Shown in pieces: positions 20,482 to 33,022 of a stretch of 35,253 nucleotides of DNA; position 1 is the first letter of the stretch, and each line of letters opens with the position of its first letter. The notes under the pieces are model-generated. The model saw only the letters and a program-made list of their open reading frames with translations, was not told the origin of the DNA and did not search any database. The position numbers and the translations under genes are program-made. The stretch comes from Candidatus Effluviviaceae Genus V sp. (GTDB lineage Bacteria; Joyebacterota; Joyebacteria; Joyebacterales; Joyebacteraceae), in the NCBI GenBank assembly GCA_014728125.1, contig WJMD01000081.1, positions 1 to 35,253 of the forward strand. The letters run 5' to 3'.

Positions 20482-20759
20482 GCTCTGGCACGCGTCTGTC
20501 TCGACGCCTCGACGCGGAGGGTCGCCGGCCAGTTGGCTCCGGCCAAGCGTCCCCGCGGCACATCGAACTGGCGGCTTACGGCTGCTGCCTCCCGGCCCTG
20601 ACCGGATTCACCGGGTCCGATTGCGCGGGACCTGACCCTCGACACCACTTCTCCGGCTCGCCTGCCGCGACTGAGGACGCCTCGGACAGATGTTCGACCC
20701 CGCTTGAGCGGATTGCGGGTTACAGGGCACCGCTGGCTCCCCGTCTAGCGTGCCAGAGC
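20482..20759 (-). ncRNA. ffs: Large (Bacillus-type) signal recognition particle RNA with Alu domain
   Basis: The minus strand contains the conserved SRP helix-8 core GGTCAGGGCCGGGAGGCAGC (around 20590-20610), with a GGGA tetraloop. Two stems flank it: ATCGGAC/GTTCGAT and GTCCCGCGCA/TGTGC..GGGAC. The 5' part carries Alu-domain sequences much like Bacillus scRNA: GACGGGGAGCCAGCGGTGCC, CTGTAACCCGCAATCCGCTC and GAAGTGGTGTCGAG. The ends pair perfectly over 12 bases (20748-20759 with 20482-20493). Beyond a short internal loop, an outer 8-base stem (20764-20771 with 20471-20478) may extend the precursor. Total about 278 nucleotides, so this is the large type, not the 4.5S form. Position between tadA/tRNAs and dnaX equals Bacillus. 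Confidence 0.93.
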
Positions 20760-20825: not shown

Positions 20826-20901
20826 TGGTGGAGATGAGCGGGTTCGAACCGCCGACCTCTGCCTTGCGAAGGCAGCGCTCTCCCAACTGAGCTACATCCC
20901 C
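20826..20901 (-). tRNA. tRNA-Ala(CGC)
   Basis: The minus-strand cloverleaf starts GGGGATGTAGCTCAGTTGG. The anticodon stem CTGCC/GGCAG encloses TTCGCAA (anticodon CGC), the T loop is TTCGAAC, and the acceptor end CATCTCC is followed by A and an encoded CCA (20828-20826). It lies 66 bases upstream of the SRP RNA. Confidence 0.95.
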
Positions 20902-20930
20902 ATGGGGTGTTCATTGTGGCCGTGCACGTC

Positions 20931-21020
<90 letters not shown>

Positions 21021-21035
21021 TGCACTCAAGCGGTC

Positions 21036-21125
21036 TGGCGGTGGGGGTGGGATTCGAACCCACGGTACCCAGAGGGTACAACGGTTTTCGAGACCGCCAC
21101 GATCGACCAGCTCCGTCACCCCACC
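21036..21125 (-). tRNA. tRNA-Ser(CGA)
   Basis: Acceptor GGTGGGG/CCCCACC, anticodon stem GCGGT/ACCGT with loop CTCGAAA (anticodon CGA), long variable arm (GTACCC-TCT-GGGTAC), T loop TTCGAAT, discriminator G and an encoded CCA. It lies 8 bases after the tadA stop and 15 bases before tRNA-Ser(GGA), so all are probably cotranscribed. Confidence 0.95.
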
Positions 21126-24969: not shown

Positions 24970-24985
24970 TGCAAGTCCTGTGCCA
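24970..24985 (-). promoter_or_regulatory. Sigma-54 (RpoN) promoter for the kinase/diguanylate cyclase pair
   Basis: The minus strand reads TGGCACAGGACTTGCA, which fits the -24/-12 consensus TGGCAC-N5-TTGC with exactly ten bases between GG and GC. It predicts a start near 24959, leaving an untranslated leader of about 80 bases before ATG 24879. Sigma-54 promoters need an enhancer-binding activator, which is not encoded in the window. The 24880-25080 gap contains no other convincing element; a weak TGCGGC/GCCGCA hairpin just after the anti-sigma stop may be a terminator. Confidence 0.75.
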
Positions 24986-25080: not shown

Positions 25081-25875
25081 TCAGCAGGGGTCGGCCCGTT
25101 CGAGCGTCAGTCCGAGGACCGCGGGCCGTTCGGCTCCCGGAGCCCGTATGAGGATGCGGTTCTCGCCGTCTGAGAGGCCCCAGGGGCCGAAGCGTCCCGC
25201 CCCGTCGGGGCTCTCCGGGCCCCGTTCGCCGGAGGCCCCCGCGAGCGCGACCGTGAGGTCGGGCGCCGGGCTGCCCTCGACGAGAGCCCGGCCGATCACC
25301 TCGGCCTCGTCTCCTCTGGCGCGGACGGTCAGCCCCACGGCGAGACCCCCGGGTCCCGCCCACGTCAGCACGACGTCCCCTGGTCCTCTCGCGGGAGCCG
25401 GCTCAAGAGCGGGTCCCGCCGCCTCCTCAGCGAAGCGGCGCACCACCTCGACGCCCTCACGCACGAGTCGGACGACGGCCGATGTCGCGTCGGCCTCCAG
25501 GCGGTCGAGTACCCGCCGCACTACGTGACCCGGCACGTCCATGTCGGACTCGCCGGACATCGCCCACAGGTCGGCGAGAAGCGCACGACAGCTGCTGCAT
25601 CGCGCAACGTGCTCCTCGATGTCGCGGCGCGCGTCCGCCGGAGCCGAGCCTTCGGCGAACGCCAGGACATCGTCGGAACGGGCACAGGCCGCGCCGGACA
25701 GGTTCGGCCCCGCCGCCGTCCCCAGCGCGGCGACGACTGAGCGGAGTTCCCGCAGGCGCACGCGACAGGCCGGGCAGCTCTCGATGTGCCGCTCGAGCCC
25801 CCGGCGATCCTCGGTACGAAGTTCGTCGCCCATCAGGAGCGGAAGACGTTTTTCCTCAGGACAGTGTTCTCTCAT
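25081..25875 (-). CDS. Putative zinc-finger anti-sigma factor
   Basis: The 264-residue product has two HxxxCxxC zinc-binding motifs of the anti-sigma type: HIESCPAC (about 30-37, with an upstream Cys5) and HVARCSSC (about 88-95, with an upstream Cys). A helical stretch follows (about 115-155), then a beta-rich tail rich in Gly/Pro. There is no membrane segment, so it should be cytoplasmic. It begins 3 bases after the ECF sigma stop (ATG 25875, GGAG upstream), the standard sigma/anti-sigma pairing. The C-terminal half matches no family I recognise and could be the target of the upstream CHAT protease (inference). Confidence 0.8.
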   Translation of the reverse strand: MREHCPEEKRLPLLMGDELRTEDRRGLERHIESCPACRVRLRELRSVVAALGTAAGPNLSGAACARSDDVLAFAEGSAPADARRDIEEHVARCSSCRALLADLWAMSGESDMDVPGHVVRRVLDRLEADATSAVVRLVREGVEVVRRFAEEAAGPALEPAPARGPGDVVLTWAGPGGLAVGLTVRARGDEAEVIGRALVEGSPAPDLTVALAGASGERGPESPDGAGRFGPWGLSDGENRILIRAPGAERPAVLGLTLERADPC

Positions 25876-25878
25876 CGT

Positions 25879-26484
25879 TCATGCTCCGGTTCGCTTCAGC
25901 TCGGCGATGCCGCCCGCGTCCTTGAGCTTCGCAAGCGCTCTGTAGACCAGGCCGCTCATGGCGCCCACCGTTGTATCGAGCCGCTCGGCGACCTCTCTGT
26001 AGGTGAAGCCCTCGAAGTAGATCAGCCTGACGGCGAGAGCCTCCCGCGGGGAGAGCGAGCGCTCGATGGCCTGCTCGAGCGACATTCTGAGATCGGCGCG
26101 TTCCGTCCGGTCGGGCGCTGCGACCGACCGTCCCGGCTCCGCGTCCAGCTCCTCCCCGTCCGGACGCCGCGACCGTCTTCGCAGAGCGTCCACGCAGACG
26201 TTTCTGACGATCCGGTAGATCCACGTCTCCAGCTTGCATTGCCCGCGCCACGAGCGCAGCGCTCTCCCATCGCGCCGGAGCAGCTTGAACACGGCCTCCT
26301 CGAAGAGCTCCTCCATGTCGGCCTCGTCCCATGCGGCCCCGTAGCGCTCGTTGACGCGGTGGATGGCGCTGAAGATCAGACGGCGATAACGGGCGATGAA
26401 CGACTCCCACGCTTCGCGCTCTCCCCGGGCAAGGCGTTTGACGAGTGCCCTCGTATCGACATCGTGGGCGGACGGATCGACCAC
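25879..26484 (-). CDS. ECF-type sigma-70 family RNA polymerase sigma factor
   Basis: The product has a region 2 with FIARYRRLIFSAIHRV, LFEEAVFKLL and the W-rich CKLETWIYRIVRNVCVDALRRRSRR, then a region 4 helix-turn-helix: SLSPREALAVRLIYFEGFTYREVAERLDTTVGAMSGLVYRALAKL. There is no region 1 or 3, as in ECF factors. Start: GTG at 26484 (201 residues) has AGAGGGAG six bases upstream; a TTG at 26508 is open but poorly served. It sits between the CHAT protease gene (60 bases upstream) and the zinc-finger protein. Target promoters are unknown; the operon's own promoter looks sigma-70-like. Confidence 0.92.
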   Translation of the reverse strand: MVDPSAHDVDTRALVKRLARGEREAWESFIARYRRLIFSAIHRVNERYGAAWDEADMEELFEEAVFKLLRRDGRALRSWRGQCKLETWIYRIVRNVCVDALRRRSRRPDGEELDAEPGRSVAAPDRTERADLRMSLEQAIERSLSPREALAVRLIYFEGFTYREVAERLDTTVGAMSGLVYRALAKLKDAGGIAELKRTGA

Positions 26485-26544
26485 GCGCGGCTCCCTCTTC
26501 TGTTCCAACCGTCGTCTGAGTGCGGGATTCTCTTCGGAAAGGGC

Positions 26545-27831
26545 TCAGGATGCTCCGATGGTGAGTGTCGGATCACCGTACAGCACGTAGTTGGCCGCGC
26601 AGAGCGGCGAATCGGGCAGCACGCGCTCCCGGGCCGCCGTGACGGCCTCACCGAGGGTGGCCCGCTCGATCAGCGCCCCGTAGAAGGCGCGCGCGAACGA
26701 CGCGGCGGCCGCATCCTGGATGTCCCAGAGCGTTCCCACGTAGGCACGGACGCCCCACTGTGAGAGCAGACGGGCCGTCTCGCCGAGGTCCGCGCATGAA
26801 GATCCGGCGACCGTGCCGCACGCGTTGGCGAACACGATGGCGGGCGGTCGGGCCGCGGCGAGCTCGTCGACCGGAGCACGCCGGCCGCCAGGCAGCACCC
26901 AGGCGGTGTTCCCATGGAACGAGACCGCATGGCCGGCGAAATGAAGCACGTCGTAGCCCTCGAACAGAAGCGTCGCCAGTTCGTCGACGGTCCTCGGCGA
27001 CTTGCGGACGACGCGCAGCACGTCGGGCCGGCGGGCGGCCAGTTCGAGGACGGCCGTCGCCTCCTCCTCGCTGGAGGGCGGCGTCTCATCACTGGAAGTC
27101 GCCGCCACGAGGAGCAGTCTCAGCGGCACAACGGGGCGGACGGCAGCAGGGCGCGTCGCGCCGGGGGCCCGAAGCTGTCGAGCGACTCTGAAGAGACGCC
27201 AGAGCGGCATGCCGCCCTCGCGGGGCACCAGGTGCTCCCACGGAAGCCCCGCGAGGTCGGCCTGAACTCCGAGCTGGAGGTGGTTCCCCGGAAGGTCGGC
27301 CAGACGTCCCGCGGCGCCTCTCTCGCCGCCGAGGACCATCTCTGCCAGAGCTCTGCCGAGTGCGTGGAGCTCCCTGCCGGCCTCCTGCGCGCCACGCTCC
27401 CTTCCGCCCCCATACGAGGCCGCGCGCGCCGCCAGGGCCGCGAAGCGTCCGCTGATGTCCCTCTCTGCCTCGGGGTTTCTCGGAAGGACGATGTCGGCGG
27501 CAGCAGCGCCGTCTCGGTCCGAGACGACGACCGTCAGATGGCCGACCGGCTCGGCTCTCAGTTGGACATCGGGAGCGGGGTCCGGCAGGAGCGTCCGCGG
27601 CGCGCGCGCCGACAGGATGAGACGCGCGGCCAGGGCCGCCGCCGCGGCGACAACGGCCAGCAGCCACCACGGGGACCGGTAGGCATCGAGGAGTGACGCG
27701 ACGCCCCGGTAGATCGCGCTGTAGGAAGCGGTCCTGACCATGAACCACAGGAGCGCAGCGCACGCGAGGACGATGAGCGCCGCGATGGAACACCCGCGGC
27801 CGGTCGAACCGCGGCCCCCGCCGGTCGACAT
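26545..27831 (-). CDS. Membrane-anchored CHAT-domain (caspase-like) protease
   Basis: The protein (428 residues from ATG 27831; GTG 27834 also possible) has two N-terminal membrane segments (about 16-34 and 56-74). A CHAT domain follows (about 95-425) with the family's LAGLPWEHLVP, catalytic His301 in DVLHFAGHA, catalytic Cys338 in IVFANACGT, GVRAYVGTLWDI and the closing NYVLYGDPTLTI. CHAT proteases are caspase relatives cleaving specific proteins, such as gasdermins or the Csx30 partner in type III-E CRISPR. The start overlaps the stop of the SbcC-like ATPase gene (TGATG), and the ECF sigma gene follows by 60 bases, so it joins a DNA-end ATPase/nuclease to a sigma switch. Catalytic competence is inferred from the intact His/Cys dyad; the substrate is unknown. 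Confidence 0.9.
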   Translation of the reverse strand: MSTGGGRGSTGRGCSIAALIVLACAALLWFMVRTASYSAIYRGVASLLDAYRSPWWLLAVVAAAAALAARLILSARAPRTLLPDPAPDVQLRAEPVGHLTVVVSDRDGAAAADIVLPRNPEAERDISGRFAALAARAASYGGGRERGAQEAGRELHALGRALAEMVLGGERGAAGRLADLPGNHLQLGVQADLAGLPWEHLVPREGGMPLWRLFRVARQLRAPGATRPAAVRPVVPLRLLLVAATSSDETPPSSEEEATAVLELAARRPDVLRVVRKSPRTVDELATLLFEGYDVLHFAGHAVSFHGNTAWVLPGGRRAPVDELAAARPPAIVFANACGTVAGSSCADLGETARLLSQWGVRAYVGTLWDIQDAAAASFARAFYGALIERATLGEAVTAARERVLPDSPLCAANYVLYGDPTLTIGAS

Positions 27832-29966
27832 CACGATCCGTCCTCCGTTTCACCGGGCGCCGCCGCGATCCCGCCCGCCCGGACCGGCGGAGGGAACCGA
27901 TGGGCCGGTGTCCCCGCCTCGGGGTGAAGCTCGCTGGTCAGGAGGATGACCTGACGGTCGTCTGCGATCGAATCGAGAAGCTCGTAGGCGGCTCTGCGGC
28001 GCTCCGGATCGAATCCCGCGAACGCGTCATCGAGGAGAAGGGGCGTCGTTCCCTCCGGCGCAAGGAGATCGAGCAGCGCGCACCGCGCCGCCAGATAGAG
28101 TTGATCGCGCGTGCCGGAGCTCAGGTCCTCCGTGTTGATCGCGTCCGGCCGGCCCGCTCCCTGCTCGGGGTTGACGACGCGGAACGCCAGGTCCGGGTCA
28201 GCGATGATCTCGTCGTAGCGCGAGAGCGTCAGGCGGCTGAGAAGTCTGGCGACCGCGGGCCCGAGCACCGTCGCGGCCCTTTCCTTGGTCGCCGCGAGCG
28301 CCTCGGCGATCCCGTCGCGAACCGCCGTGAGGACACGGACCCTTCTCCCATGCCGGGAGATCTCCGACTCGGCGGACTCCACCCTGGCCTCGAGCTCCGG
28401 GAGTTCCTCGCCCGCTTTCGCCCGGGCGAGACGCCCCTCGCCACGCGCGACGCGCTCCGACAGCTCCTGCTCTCGTGCACGCGCCTCGTCCCGCTCCGCG
28501 CGGATCCTGGCAAGCGCCTCGTCGTCGAGTGGCGGCGCCTCCGCGTCGAGTCCGCGGTCAAGCTCCCTGACACGACGCGCCAGGCCGGTCGCCTCCTCCT
28601 CGAGCCTGGCCAGGAAGCCCTCCTCGTCGCCGTGCGTGAGGTCCTCGAGCAGCCGGTTGTTCACGTCGATACGAAGCCGAAGCTCGTCCTGGTGGGCAAC
28701 CAGTTCCTCGAACTCCGAGTATCCCGCGACGCCGAGCTCCCTCAGTCCGTGCTCGAGAGCCTCCTGTCGCTGGGCCAGCTCGGCCTCGGCCTCGGACAGC
28801 GCATGTGCTGCCTCGGTCAGGCGCGCGGCCCTGCGGAGGCCCAGCACGGCGACCGCGACCGCCACCGCACCCAGACCGGTCCAGACCGGCCAGCCCTCGA
28901 CCCGGAGGATGGCCCCGACGATGAGCCCCGCGCCCACGGCGGCGGCGATCCAGCTGACGATCCTCGCTGCACTCGAGGCGCGCGCCGAGTTCGGCGGCGC
29001 GCTCCGGCGCACGCGGTCGAGATGCTCCTCGGCGGCGACCAGCGCTGCCCGCAGGTCCTCCACGCGGCGCTCCTTGAGTGGAGAGCCGCGCTTGAGTGCG
29101 GCCCACGCATCCGCATGCTCCTGCCTCAGGCGGCGGACCTCGCGGATCCTCCCCTCGACCTCCTCCAGCCGGCCTCTCACCCTCTCGAGCTCCGTGGCGC
29201 TCTCCCGTCGCTCGAGCTCGCGCCTGTAGAGCCTGTCAGAACGCTTCAGTCGCTCCCGCGTCTCCTCGAGCTCCGCGCGGTCGCGCGTCAGGCCGTCGAG
29301 CGCCTCCAGGTAGTCCTCCCACTCCCCCCTGGCCTCTTCGAGTGCGCTTCCGATGAGGCGGCGCTGTTCGATCGCCGCGCGCAGCGGTCCCGGGCGCTTG
29401 GAGGGTCTGTCCATGCCGACACGGATCCTCGATATCTCGCGGTCGACCCCTTCGATGACACCCGCCGCGCCCGTCGTCCCGCCCGCGCTCGTGAGGCGTG
29501 CCTCGATGAGCGGCAGCAGGCCCTTTCGACGAGAGGGAAGCGCGACGTCGGCAAGCTCATTCTGGCGGACGGCGGCCACCGATTCGAAGACCTCCCGGGC
29601 CCTGAAACCGACGATAGAGGCGACCCGGCGGTCGACCTCCTTCCTGTCGGCCACCGTCACCGAACCGTCCGGAGAGCTGAGACGGCTCTCGCCGTTCCCG
29701 AAGTCCTTCTCGAGGATCCAGACCTCGCCGTCGTGATCGAACTCGAGCCTCAGACGCATGGCCCCCGGCGAGCCCCATCGCTCGTGCTTCAGGGTCTTCT
29801 TCGCCGTAGTTGCCGGATCGACATAGAGGACCGTCGCGACCGCCTCGAGGAAGGTGCTCTTGCCCGACTCGTTGGGGCCGACCAGCACGTTCAACCCCGG
29901 TTCGAACTCGACCACGTGCTCCCTGAAGCGACCGAAGTTGAGCATGTCCAGGCGTCTGAGTCTCAC
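27831..29966 (-). CDS. SbcC/YhaN-like SMC-type ATPase with a membrane-spanning hinge
   Basis: The product (711 residues) is built like Rad50/SbcC. Walker A is GPNESGKST (30-38) near the N-terminus. Long coiled coils flank the centre (about 195-330 and 385-560). The ABC signature LSSGTRDQLYLAARCALLDLL and Walker B LLLDDAFAGFD follow at about 615-652. Where Rad50 has a CxxC zinc hook there are two hydrophobic segments (about 334-354 and 359-377), as in the YhaN family. I choose GTG 29966, four bases after the nuclease stop, because it gives the family N-terminus (V)RLRRLDMLNFGRF; a longer start at 30002 is possible. With the neighbour it should form a nuclease/ATPase on DNA ends, probably at the membrane. 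Confidence 0.9.
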   Translation of the reverse strand: MRLRRLDMLNFGRFREHVVEFEPGLNVLVGPNESGKSTFLEAVATVLYVDPATTAKKTLKHERWGSPGAMRLRLEFDHDGEVWILEKDFGNGESRLSSPDGSVTVADRKEVDRRVASIVGFRAREVFESVAAVRQNELADVALPSRRKGLLPLIEARLTSAGGTTGAAGVIEGVDREISRIRVGMDRPSKRPGPLRAAIEQRRLIGSALEEARGEWEDYLEALDGLTRDRAELEETRERLKRSDRLYRRELERRESATELERVRGRLEEVEGRIREVRRLRQEHADAWAALKRGSPLKERRVEDLRAALVAAEEHLDRVRRSAPPNSARASSAARIVSWIAAAVGAGLIVGAILRVEGWPVWTGLGAVAVAVAVLGLRRAARLTEAAHALSEAEAELAQRQEALEHGLRELGVAGYSEFEELVAHQDELRLRIDVNNRLLEDLTHGDEEGFLARLEEEATGLARRVRELDRGLDAEAPPLDDEALARIRAERDEARAREQELSERVARGEGRLARAKAGEELPELEARVESAESEISRHGRRVRVLTAVRDGIAEALAATKERAATVLGPAVARLLSRLTLSRYDEIIADPDLAFRVVNPEQGAGRPDAINTEDLSSGTRDQLYLAARCALLDLLAPEGTTPLLLDDAFAGFDPERRRAAYELLDSIADDRQVILLTSELHPEAGTPAHRFPPPVRAGGIAAAPGETEDGS

Positions 29967-29970
29967 GGTC

Positions 29971-31092
29971 TCAAAGCTCCCTTCCCTGAAGAAGGGAGAC
30001 ACCGAGCTGGAGGGCGTCCTCGAGCTCCGCCCTCTCCTCAGGGTCGTCCGCCTTCTCGATCCTCGATCGCATCAGCCGGGCGAACCGCCCGACGACCATC
30101 TCGGACGGGAGCCTTGAGAGCGACTCCTCGTCGAGCCGGACGTGAAATGCACGTTCGGGGACCGACACGTGGAAGTACTCGTCCGACAGAAGCTCCAGAA
30201 GTACGGACTCATCGAACCCCGCGTCCGCGTCAATGAGACCCTCGAGCGTCAGCTCGAGGATCGTGTCGTCGGACGGCGGGACGATGCCTCGGATCCTCCC
30301 GGCCAGCGCCGCCGCGTCTCCATCGCCGATCTCAATCTCGGCCTTCCGAACGGCGCGCCTGGCGACCGGGACCCGTTCGACACGGGGGTCGTGGTCCGCG
30401 AAGTGGACGAGCGCCACGCTCCCGGCTCCCTCCTGGTCCGGCGCGACGATCTCGGGCGACCCGGCGTAGACCGCGGACGAGGTCACCTCCTTCCAGGAGT
30501 GCCAGTGGCCGAGGGCCACGTACGACCATCCGGCGTCGAGCTCAGCCGTCGACATCGGATGGTCGGACGATGCTCCGGGGACGATCTCCACGGAGCCGTG
30601 GGCGACCGCCACGTTGATGGGGATTCCCGGGCTCGGCTTGAGGTTCGCGAGCGGGCGCTCGGACGACGCGTTCGTCGTCAGAGGTCGGCCATGGACCGCG
30701 AGCCCCCTGTGGGTGAGCTCGACGCTGTCCCGCTCCTCCAGACCGAGCACCACGAGCCGCTCGGCGCGGGAGAACTCCTGGCGGTAGCTCTCGAAGACCG
30801 TTCCTGTGCCGAGATGGTCGTGGGAACCGGGAAGAACGACGGCCGTTCCCCCGCTTCCCGATGCGTAGCGCGTGAGTTCGGAGATGGCGAAGCGGACGTC
30901 GGAGGCCGGCGGGCTCGTCGAGTCGAAGAGGTCACCGGCGACGATGAGACAGTCGGCCCGGCGGTCGAGCGCGAGGTCGACGATCGACGCGAACGTTTCC
31001 CTGAGCTGCCGTCGCTGTTCTCCGGCTGCCTCGCCGAGCCAGCCGAGCGGCGCTCCCAGGTGTACGTCGCAGGTGTGGACGAGCAGTGCCAC
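29971..31092 (-). CDS. SbcD/YhaO-like metallophosphoesterase nuclease
   Basis: The 373-residue product is a calcineurin-fold phosphoesterase of the Mre11/SbcD/YhaO type. Motifs: CDVHLG (D9, H11), AGDLFD (D54), PGSHDH (H91, D92; the usual GNHD Asn is Ser), VAHGSV and ALGHWHSW. A C-terminal helical region (about 300-370) could contact the ATPase. Start: GTG at 31092 with GGAGGAGG upstream; an open frame extends to 31155 over the promoter. It is first in the five-gene unit, and its stop is four bases before the ATPase start. Function as a DNA nuclease is inferred from family; the Ser in motif III might lower activity. Confidence 0.9.
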   Translation of the reverse strand: MALLVHTCDVHLGAPLGWLGEAAGEQRRQLRETFASIVDLALDRRADCLIVAGDLFDSTSPPASDVRFAISELTRYASGSGGTAVVLPGSHDHLGTGTVFESYRQEFSRAERLVVLGLEERDSVELTHRGLAVHGRPLTTNASSERPLANLKPSPGIPINVAVAHGSVEIVPGASSDHPMSTAELDAGWSYVALGHWHSWKEVTSSAVYAGSPEIVAPDQEGAGSVALVHFADHDPRVERVPVARRAVRKAEIEIGDGDAAALAGRIRGIVPPSDDTILELTLEGLIDADAGFDESVLLELLSDEYFHVSVPERAFHVRLDEESLSRLPSEMVVGRFARLMRSRIEKADDPEERAELEDALQLGVSLLQGREL

Positions 31093-31126
31093 GGATCCTC
31101 CTCCAGGGTACGTCGTTGTCCGCTCG

Positions 31127-31155
31127 ATGCTACGTTCGCGCCGCGGCGCGGTCAA
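31127..31155 (-). promoter_or_regulatory. Sigma-70-type promoter for the nuclease-ATPase-CHAT-sigma operon
   Basis: TTGACC (31155-31150), 17-base spacer and TAGCAT (31132-31127), ending 34 bases before the nuclease GTG. The spacer carries a perfect palindrome GCGCCGCGGCGC, a possible repressor site. Same promoter style as upstream of porG. Confidence 0.6.
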
Positions 31156-31171
31156 GCGGCTCCGGACATGA

Positions 31172-31202
31172 AAGGAGCGCGGGCACCGGGCCCGCGCTCC
31201 TT
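31172..31202 (-). terminator. Hairpin terminator after the lipoprotein gene
   Basis: A perfect 13-base-pair stem (31172-31184 with 31190-31202) with a 5-base loop, 40 bases after the lipoprotein stop. On the minus strand it ends in CTCCTTTCATG, a short T run. It separates the lipoprotein gene from the nuclease operon promoter. Confidence 0.7.
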
Positions 31203-31242: not shown

Positions 31243-32463
31243 CTATCGCCTGACCTCCATCCAGTCGTAGATCTGCTGCCAGTCGTTGTTCGTCATGTTC
31301 GGCGTCACATTGCTGAACGACGGGTCGGGGAACGCGATCGGCTCGGTCACGACCATGACGGAGTCGCCCTCCCACGTGTGGTAAGGGAAATAGTCCCTCA
31401 GGTCGTCCAGCGGGTCGTTGAAGAACTCGGCGACGTCGAAGTAGACGTCGATGTCGGGTGCCGCCACATCGTCCGTGTCCTCGGACGGATTGAATGTGAC
31501 CCCGTAGATCAACCAGTCCTGCATCTCACCGGCGTAGAAGCGGATCGAGTCGACGGCGCCTGCCCCCATCATGTCGTCGAGCGGGATGAGCCCCAGCGTC
31601 TCCGTGATGAGGTCGTTCGTCTGATCGTCGGTCTCCGCCTCGAGCTCGTCGCACCCGTCGAGGAGATGCTCCGACATGTCGACCATCTTGTCGTAGGCGG
31701 TCGCCATGTGGTCGTCGTTCCTGAGGGTGAGGAAGTCCTCATCCTCCTCGATCAGGTGGTACTGCGTCTCGCCGGCCTCGACGTCCATGTTGTACGAGAC
31801 GACCATGGCGAACATGCTCTCGAGACCGTCGAGCGGCGCGTGGATGAAGTACGCGTCGGTCGCGTCGATCTCGATCTGGACGGTCTCCCGGCGCTCCGGG
31901 ATCTCGACCTCGATCGTGAAGGAGCAGTCCTGCGTTTCGAAGGCGGTCAGCCTGCTGTCGGCGTAGGCGAGCGCGGGCATGACCTCTGACTCGATGAACT
32001 CCTGGATCTCCGAGAAGAGGATCGGGTCGTCCTGCCTGATACGGTCGATCCGGTCGGCGACGGCGAAGACGTTGGGCTTGTCGAGCATCCAGAGCAGCGG
32101 CGCCTCGCGCGAGGCCCGCTCCTCCTCCCACCCCTCGTCCATGATATCGCCCAGATCCTCATCGGTCGCCACCATGAGCAGGCGGACGAACGCCGAGAAG
32201 AACAGGGCGCCGCAGTGGTCCGAGTCCGCGTCGAGGGCGTCCTCGAAGTCCGACTGGGCCTTCGACAGGTCGACCTCCCACTCCCAGGGGGCCTCCTCGG
32301 TGTCCACGTCCTCCATCTCGTCCATCAGCTCGTCCATACCCGTCGCGAACGAGGCCTCCGCCTCCGCCTCGTCGGCCTCCTCGAAGAGGTCGCTGCAGCC
32401 GGCGAGACCGAGCACGAGCGCCGTCAGCAGCAGACCGCAGCTGAGAATCCTCACCAGTTTCAT
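31243..32463 (-). CDS. Acidic lipoprotein of unknown function
   Basis: The 406-residue product has a classic lipoprotein signal: MKLVRILS, a hydrophobic core and lipobox LAGC with Cys23, followed by Ser-Asp, which suggests the outer membrane by the +2 rule used in other diderms. The mature part is very rich in Asp and Glu (for example DEAEAEASFATGMDELMDEM, EDVDTEEAPWEWEVD), with long helical repeats, and may bind cations. I do not recognise the family; an N-terminal TPR-like part is possible. Start: ATG at 32463 with AAGGGGG upstream (ATG 32466 adjacent). It is a single-gene unit with promoter at 32510 and terminator at 31172. Confidence 0.8.
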   Translation of the reverse strand: MKLVRILSCGLLLTALVLGLAGCSDLFEEADEAEAEASFATGMDELMDEMEDVDTEEAPWEWEVDLSKAQSDFEDALDADSDHCGALFFSAFVRLLMVATDEDLGDIMDEGWEEERASREAPLLWMLDKPNVFAVADRIDRIRQDDPILFSEIQEFIESEVMPALAYADSRLTAFETQDCSFTIEVEIPERRETVQIEIDATDAYFIHAPLDGLESMFAMVVSYNMDVEAGETQYHLIEEDEDFLTLRNDDHMATAYDKMVDMSEHLLDGCDELEAETDDQTNDLITETLGLIPLDDMMGAGAVDSIRFYAGEMQDWLIYGVTFNPSEDTDDVAAPDIDVYFDVAEFFNDPLDDLRDYFPYHTWEGDSVMVVTEPIAFPDPSFSNVTPNMTNNDWQQIYDWMEVRR

Positions 32464-32509
32464 CATCTTCCCCCTTGAGAGAGTCTGTTTCCCGAACCTC
32501 ACCGCTGCG

Positions 32510-32539
32510 AGCATAGAAGGGTCAGGACGATCCTGTCAA
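32510..32539 (-). promoter_or_regulatory. Sigma-70-type promoter for the lipoprotein gene
   Basis: TTGACA (32539-32534), 18-base spacer, TATGCT (32515-32510): a near-consensus promoter, with the start expected near 32503 and a leader of about 40 bases. Confidence 0.75.
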
Positions 32540-32739: not shown

Positions 32740-32816
<77 letters not shown>

Positions 32817-32824
32817 GTTGCCTC

Positions 32825-32914
<90 letters not shown>

Positions 32915-32933
32915 GTTGGGAGCTCGTTCACGC

Positions 32934-33022
32934 TGGCGGAGGGCGAGGGACTCGAACCCCCAAGGGCCGTGAGGCCCGGCGGTTTTCAAGACCGCTGCCT
33001 TACCAGTTAGGTCTAGCCCTCC
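32934..33022 (-). tRNA. tRNA-Ser(UGA)
   Basis: Acceptor GGAGGGC/GCCCTCC, anticodon stem GCGGT/ACCGC with loop CTTGAAA (anticodon TGA), long variable arm (GGGCC-TCAC-GGCCC), T loop TTCGAGT, discriminator G and an encoded CCA. First of the three-tRNA unit; promoter at 33033. Confidence 0.94.

What the first reader, a model, noticed from the sequence alone, without database searches (positions are those of the whole stretch)
25081..31155. Five-gene operon joining an SbcCD/YhaON-like nuclease-ATPase, a CHAT protease, an ECF sigma factor and its zinc-finger anti-sigma factor
Seen: one promoter (31127-31155) is followed by nuclease, ATPase, CHAT protease, ECF sigma and zinc-finger protein, with junctions of 4 bases, an overlap, 60 bases and 3 bases. 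No hairpin terminator was seen between them. Known: Mre11/Rad50-type complexes act on DNA ends. CHAT proteases are caspase relatives, and in type III-E CRISPR a CHAT protease cleaves a partner that controls an ECF sigma factor. Inference: the nuclease-ATPase senses abnormal DNA ends, activates the CHAT protease, and cleavage of the zinc-finger protein frees the sigma factor: a CRISPR-independent DNA-damage or anti-phage signalling system. I know of no described system with this exact composition.
Basis: partly seen in the sequence, partly recalled or inferred. Interest (0 to 1): 0.85.

Follow-up and report, generated by a model that had tools for sequence, protein, structure and literature searches.

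The report
CHAT-protease sigma switch beside membrane nuclease
In a little-known deep-sea bacterial phylum, a caspase-like protease anchored in the membrane sits with a stress-response sigma factor and its inhibitor, behind a DNA nuclease-ATPase pair; the protease-sigma-inhibitor trio recurs in unrelated bacteria and looks like a general protein-cutting gene switch, while its tie to the nuclease is unproven.

Summary
The five genes are real and ordered as described. The trio is present in 18 of 20 held genomes of the phylum (Candidatus Effluviviacota), 7 of 8 genera, in the same order as far as contigs reach. Conserved order proves little here, because the whole >20-kb housekeeping neighbourhood is conserved too. 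The locus is two modules. (1) A YhaON/SbcCD-like nuclease-ATPase with a transmembrane hairpin in the ATPase, behind a sigma-70 promoter. (2) A trio: membrane-anchored CHAT protein with invariant His/Cys, ECF sigma, and soluble double-ZAS anti-sigma. A complete genome (G017) keeps module 1 and lacks exactly module 2. In other phyla the trio occurs without the nuclease (7 of 13 loci picked by CHAT similarity alone). New here: GCGAAGAA-N15-CG(A/T)C, about 53 bp before the sigma gene in 18 of 18 genomes, a likely autoregulated ECF promoter, so the locus is not one transcript only. Best reading: CHAT cuts the soluble anti-sigma and frees an autoregulated ECF sigma, as in Csx29/Csx30/CASP-sigma, and akin to Myxococcus DdvA, where ZAS and CHAT are one protein. 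New variant of a known kind.

The parts
31127..31155 (-). sigma-70-type promoter TTGACC-N17-TAGCAT of the nuclease-ATPase transcript
   Evidence: only hit in the region, 0.1 expected; equivalents in g2 and g5
31175..31199 (-). GC-rich hairpin followed by a short T run, probable terminator of the upstream gene (31243-32514)
   Evidence: read from sequence, located; not scored by the terminator scan
29971..31092 (-). SbcD/Mre11/YhaO-like metallophosphoesterase (373 aa); motifs DVH, GD, GSHD (Ser for Asn), H, GHWH
   Evidence: Pfam PF00149, SbcD/Mre11 structures, motif table
27831..29966 (-). YhaN/Rad50-like ATPase (711 aa): Walker A GPNESGKS, LSSGT-DQLYLA signature, LDDAF Walker B
   Evidence: Pfam AAA_23 and AAA_27, Rad50 structures, alignment A5
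28836..28961 (-). two predicted transmembrane helices (residues 336-354 and 359-377) in the middle of the ATPase
   Evidence: hydropathy scan; both helices in 7 of 9 sequences, the first in all 9
26545..27834 (-). CHAT (caspase/separase-like) protein, 429 aa; catalytic His302 and Cys339 invariant
   Evidence: PF12770 E=5.6e-21, alignment A1, fold match to Craspase TPR-CHAT, separase and DdvA
27607..27792 (-). two N-terminal transmembrane helices of the CHAT protein (residues 15-33 and 58-76)
   Evidence: hydropathy and model helices 13-35 and 55-76
26511..26537 (-). conserved ECF-type promoter-like element CCGAAGAG-N15-CGAC upstream of the sigma gene
   Evidence: equivalent element 45-55 bp (29 bp in L023, where another start was chosen) before the sigma start in 18/18 genomes
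25879..26484 (-). ECF sigma factor (201 aa, sigma-2 and sigma-4)
   Evidence: PF04542/PF08281, TIGR02937 3.5e-29
25081..25875 (-). soluble anti-sigma: two zf-HC2/ZAS domains (H30-C34-C37; H89-C93-C96) plus C-terminal beta domain
   Evidence: PF13490, alignment A2, no TM, model, match to DdvA ZAS
24970..24985 (-). sigma-54 (-24/-12) promoter TGGCACAGGACTTGCA of the downstream histidine kinase/GGDEF response regulator; marks the end of the operon
   Evidence: found in all 13 loci of the trio-bearing genomes tested; one-base variant TGGCATGGGACTTGCA in G017

Best explanation
The locus is two neighbouring modules. The trio works as a proteolytic gene switch. An ECF sigma factor is held by a soluble anti-sigma carrying two zinc-binding ZAS domains and a C-terminal beta-sandwich. 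The CHAT protein, held in the membrane by two helices with its caspase-like domain in the cytoplasm, cuts the anti-sigma when activated. The freed sigma then transcribes its own gene and the anti-sigma gene from the conserved GCGAAGAA-N15-CG(A/T)C element, plus targets not identified here. The adjacent YhaON-like nuclease-ATPase is a membrane-tethered SbcCD relative with its own housekeeping promoter; it can exist without the trio and may or may not feed a signal to it. Shown: gene content, conserved His/Cys, ZAS cysteines, predicted TM segments, conserved promoter-like element, recurrence of the trio in other phyla, absence of the trio as a unit in one genome. Inferred: that CHAT is an active protease, that the anti-sigma is its substrate, that the sigma recognises the element. 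Unknown: the trigger and the regulon.
For: The trio recurs without the nuclease pair in 7 of 13 non-phylum loci picked only by CHAT similarity, in two gene orders, always with a CHAT protein carrying a TM segment and an anti-sigma carrying none. G017 lacks CHAT, sigma and anti-sigma together while nuclease, ATPase, HK (with its sigma-54 site) and RR stay. CHAT His302/Cys339 invariant in 15 orthologues; the model fits Craspase TPR-CHAT (E=1.1e-11), separases, SAVED-CHAT and 'transmembrane anti-sigma factor DdvA'. The anti-sigma ZAS matches DdvA, whose ZAS and CHAT lie in one chain. ECF-like element before the sigma gene in 18/18 genomes with fixed N15 spacing, kept even where it overlaps the end of the CHAT gene in genus g4. 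Protease-anti-sigma-ECF switches with CHAT (Csx29/Csx30/CASP-sigma, PMC10028731) and with Lon (CalpL/T/S, PMC11417357) are established.
Against: No biochemistry; CHAT proteins can be inactive or act as scaffolds. The regulon could not be resolved: genome hits of the element are mostly Ala-Lys-Lys/Asn codons inside genes. The element is known only upstream of the sigma gene, so its role as an ECF promoter is inferred. The ZAS domains could sense redox or zinc directly and need no protease.
Confidence: 0.6

Rival explanations
1. One reading: one five-gene pathway in which the nuclease-ATPase senses abnormal DNA ends and activates the CHAT protease, which cuts the anti-sigma to release the sigma (DNA-damage or anti-phage response).
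For: Order nuc-atp-CHAT-ECF-ZAS wherever the trio is held and contigs reach; GTGA coupling of ATPase and CHAT in the window; both ATPase and CHAT are predicted membrane proteins and could meet there.
Against: More than 20 kb around it is equally syntenic; G017 keeps the pair without the trio; in other phyla pair and trio were found apart; genus g4 lost nuclease metal ligands but keeps the trio; the ATPase-CHAT gap is tens to over a hundred bases in other genera, with a palindrome in g4; the sigma gene has its own element.
Confidence: 0.2
2. Non-proteolytic switch: CHAT is a membrane scaffold, and the ZAS domains respond to redox, zinc or ligand binding on their beta domain, releasing the sigma without cleavage.
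For: Two complete ZAS zinc sites; C-terminal beta-sandwich with only weak Ig-like matches; some ZAS anti-sigmas act by redox (general knowledge).
Against: The presumed catalytic His and Cys are invariant in all CHAT orthologues at about 40% identity, hard to explain for a scaffold; CHAT accompanies the sigma/anti-sigma genes across phyla.
Confidence: 0.15
3. The pair and the trio are coincidental neighbours: the trio merely sits in a frozen chromosomal region and has no functional tie to the nuclease-ATPase (compatible with the best explanation of the trio itself).
For: Precise absence of the trio in G017 with flanks intact; general synteny; separate promoter-like elements.
Against: The same order and orientation are kept in seven genera, and in the window and G003 the ATPase and CHAT genes overlap, which usually means shared transcription.
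Confidence: 0.45

Closest known systems
DdvS/DdvA (Myxococcus xanthus ECF sigma / transmembrane anti-sigma; PDB 8rlz, 8rot, 8rw5)
   Same: ZAS-type anti-sigma tied to a membrane-anchored CHAT domain; sequence match of the ZAS and fold match of CHAT
   Different: In DdvA, ZAS, TM and CHAT are one protein; here the CHAT is a separate membrane protein and the anti-sigma is soluble with two ZAS and a beta domain. DdvS controls a CRISPR-Cas operon (from memory); none was found beside this locus
Type III-E CRISPR: Csx29 (TPR-CHAT) / Csx30 / CASP-sigma (PMC10028731)
   Same: CHAT protease, sigma inhibitor and ECF sigma encoded together; protease relieves inhibition
   Different: No Cas7-11 or crRNA machinery found among the flanking genes examined; CHAT lacks TPR and has TM helices; the inhibitor is a ZAS protein rather than a Csx30
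CalpL/CalpT/CalpS (type III CRISPR; PMC11417357)
   Same: Protease cuts a soluble anti-sigma to release an ECF sigma
   Different: Lon-SAVED protease triggered by cA4; here CHAT with no SAVED domain seen
ECF54-type loci with CHAT genes in context (review PMC8999054)
   Same: ECF sigma with CHAT protein encoded nearby
   Different: ECF54 was proposed to work without an anti-sigma; here a dedicated ZAS anti-sigma is present
YhaO/YhaN and SbcCD/Mre11-Rad50
   Same: Nuclease plus Rad50-type ATPase with the known motifs; membrane-hairpin ATPases next to such nucleases in several other phyla
   Different: GSHD instead of GNHD in the nuclease; metal site eroded in genus g4; short ATPase with TM hairpin

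Membership tests
CHAT (caspase-HetF associated with TPRs) peptidases | CHAT profile and caspase/separase-like fold | tested here: met
   PF12770 75.7 bits vs cut-off 24; Foldseek to Craspase, separase, gingipain
CHAT (caspase-HetF associated with TPRs) peptidases | catalytic His/Cys dyad | tested here: met
   His302 and Cys339 invariant in 15 sequences
CHAT (caspase-HetF associated with TPRs) peptidases | proteolytic activity | not testable with these tools
   needs biochemistry
ECF sigma factors | regions 2 and 4 with short linker, no region 3 | tested here: met
   PF04542 at 38-115 and PF08281 at 151-195 of the 209-aa frame; TIGR02937
ZAS anti-sigma factors | zf-HC2 with H-x3-C-x2-C and sigma gene next door | tested here: met
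   two copies, H30/C34/C37 and H89/C93/C96 invariant; 3 bases after the sigma gene
ZAS anti-sigma factors | binding and inhibition of the partner sigma | not testable with these tools
   needs biochemistry
SbcCD / YhaON (Mre11-Rad50-like) | Mre11 motifs including GNH(D/E) and GHxH | tested here: inconclusive
   all present in the window except Asn to Ser in GNHD; GHxH second His lost in genus g4, motif I His lost in G006
SbcCD / YhaON (Mre11-Rad50-like) | Rad50-type Walker A, signature and Walker B | tested here: met
   alignment A5, Rad50 structures
Type III-E CRISPR (Craspase) | Cas7-11 and CRISPR components next to the CHAT gene | tested here: not met
   flanking genes are housekeeping in the window and syntenic; the whole genome was not searched for Cas7-11
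DdvA-type transmembrane anti-sigma | ZAS, TM and CHAT in one polypeptide | tested here: not met
   separate genes; anti-sigma without TM
Known anti-phage defence systems (PADLOC) | match to system-specific models | tested here: not met
   only the ATPase matches, to many unrelated AAA-bearing families; no hit for the other four

The most novel reading that the evidence does not exclude
In Effluviviacota a membrane-tethered Mre11/Rad50-like complex passes a DNA signal directly to a membrane CHAT protease, which cuts a soluble anti-sigma and starts an autoregulated ECF response: a CRISPR-independent DNA-sensing protease-to-transcription pathway.
Probability: 0.2. Interest if true: 0.85.

Novelty: new variant of a known kind. 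Interest (0 to 1): 0.55.

Why it matters
CHAT-gated sigma switches are known mainly from CRISPR loci and, by structure, from DdvA. A stand-alone trio with a membrane protease and a soluble anti-sigma, recurring in unrelated genomes and with a conserved candidate promoter, would make protease-to-transcription signalling a general bacterial device rather than a CRISPR accessory. The conserved element and the natural trio-less genome make it directly testable, and the nuclease link, if real, would tie DNA damage to it.

Tried and rejected
Finding named relatives by the single CHAT sequence in genome contigs gave nothing; the sigma alignment did. Regulon search with GCGAAGAA-N15-CGWC across 20 genomes: hits exceed the reversed-pattern control but are mostly coding (AKK/AKN codons); of 20 inspected only one or two lie just upstream of a gene, in single genomes, so no regulon is claimed. 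A split five-gene locus in G290 was considered because its nuclease and its trio both lie near contig ends; the sequence before CHAT there does not look like an ATPase end, rejected. Fold search with the anti-sigma: only weak Ig-like beta-sandwich matches, none at E<=0.001. Gene order as proof of coupling was rejected because the whole neighbourhood is syntenic. Literature searches on YhaN/YhaO and on CHAT with zinc finger and sigma gave nothing useful. The anti-phage island reading was rejected as main reading: fixed, vertically kept chromosomal position.

Full report
What was checked. The nuclease most likely starts at GTG 31092 (GGAGG just upstream) rather than TTG 31155, which coincides with the -35 box. 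The promoter TTGACC-N17-TAGCAT at 31155-31127 is the only sigma-70-like site in the region (0.1 expected) and has counterparts in genera g2 and g5.

Whose genome. The window is contig C81 of a 2.5-Mb assembly, 97.6% complete. Relatives carry the names Candidatus Eisenbacteria and Candidatus Effluviviaceae; the phylum is Candidatus Effluviviacota, described from seep sediments (PMC11323493). Twenty genomes of it are held: one family, eight genera.

Conservation in the phylum. CHAT orthologues were found in 17 of 20 genomes by one search, and a contig-edge fragment in G016 by profile, so 18 in all. The order is upstream gene, nuclease, ATPase, CHAT, sigma, anti-sigma, histidine kinase, GGDEF response regulator as far as contigs reach. 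In G002, G004 and G016 it is pieced together across contig ends; G005, G010, G014 and G018 show only part. But the neighbouring block from the aminotransferase to dnaX, ybaB and recR is equally conserved (names), so the order by itself is weak evidence that all five genes work together.

The natural deletion. G017 (genus g7, rated 100% complete) keeps nuclease and ATPase, followed at once by the kinase and regulator with the sigma-54 site intact; CHAT, sigma and anti-sigma are absent from the place, and CHAT and the orthologous sigma from the genome. On a tree of six flanking proteins G017 pairs with G018, which has the trio (support 0.97; midpoint root), so loss is likelier than late gain, although a root on the G017 branch is not excluded. 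G019 (57% complete) is uninformative.

Anatomy. Nuclease: DVH, GD, GSHD, H, GHWH. Ser replaces the usual Asn (Cys in G018). In six g4 genomes the last His of GHxH is Arg, Pro or Gly, and G006 also lost the first His. Related nucleases in other phyla have GTHD or GNHD. ATPase: 703-734 aa, Rad50-like, with hydrophobic helices at about 336-354 and 359-377, as in several membrane-hairpin relatives. CHAT: two N-terminal TM helices; most relatives also have a CxxC...CxxC ribbon before them, which the window's protein lacks. Sigma: ECF, 69% mean column identity. Anti-sigma: two ZAS domains and a beta domain, no TM in eight of nine sequences (one borderline C-terminal stretch).

The trio outside the phylum. 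A CHAT profile search of 386 genomes gave loci fetched by CHAT similarity alone. Of 13, seven have an ECF sigma and a zf anti-sigma next to CHAT (L124, L125, L126, L128, L129, L132, L136), some in the order CHAT-ECF-anti-sigma and some ECF-anti-sigma-CHAT; none shows the nuclease or ATPase. Four of the six others lie close to a contig end. In all seven, CHAT has a TM segment and the anti-sigma none. Conversely, the closest nuclease-ATPase pairs in other phyla have no CHAT or sigma of this kind next to them.

Control. GCGAAGAA-N15-CG(A/T)C (allowing one or two changes in the first part) lies about 53 bp before the sigma start in 18 of 18 genomes of seven genera; the relaxed pattern occurs only nine other times in about 314 kb of the same loci, both strands. 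In g4 the element overlaps the end of the CHAT gene and is still kept. An ECF autoregulated promoter is the natural reading. The sigma-54 element before the kinase sets the downstream limit.

Mechanism. The CHAT model matches the type III-E protease, separases and 'transmembrane anti-sigma factor DdvA'. DdvA joins ZAS and CHAT in one chain: 8rlz (named DdvA) and 8rot (named CHAT protein) give the same aligned sequence, and 8rot is titled DdvA. With Csx29/Csx30/CASP-sigma and CalpL/T/S this makes protease-gated sigma release the most economical function of the trio. What activates CHAT is unknown. A link from the nuclease-ATPase remains possible, since both are predicted membrane proteins and adjacent, but the evidence above is against it being obligatory.

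Verdict. Observation confirmed; interpretation partly supported; new variant of a known kind; the coupling of pair and trio is open.

Noticed in passing
window 24970-24985 (and upstream of the kinase in the other loci): Highly conserved sigma-54 promoter TGGCAC-N5-TTGCA before a GAF histidine kinase and a REC-GGDEF response regulator; why this pair is RpoN-controlled is unknown.
   Followed up: partly
L023-L027, L029 (genus g4), nuclease gene: Nuclease metal-site residues eroded (GHxH to GHx[R/P/G]; DVH to DVD in G006; start region odd in G005) while gene and operon persist.
   Followed up: partly
g4 loci (e.g. L026), ATPase-CHAT gap: Near-perfect palindrome CACACGCTCTTCCCTGAGGGAAGAGCGTGTG between ATPase and CHAT, without a T run; could be an attenuator or a binding site.
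   Followed up: no
L024, L033 upstream of the nuclease: Sigma-54-like sites (AGGCACGAACTCTGCA, CGGCACGGCCTCTGCA) before the nuclease gene, where other genera have a sigma-70 promoter: possible promoter swap.
   Followed up: no
CHAT N-terminus in L020-L034: Zinc-ribbon-like CPxCG...CxxCG before the first TM helix in most orthologues, lost in the window's protein.
   Followed up: no
L195 (G001:C15:76517): Single intergenic copy of the ECF-like element about 40 bp before a gene for a protein with a signal peptide; possible regulon member, one genome only.
   Followed up: partly
window 20488-20753, 20826-21125, 32740-33022: Large bacterial SRP RNA and two clusters of tRNA genes (Ala/Ser/Ser and Arg/Ser/Ser) in the same block.
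   Followed up: no
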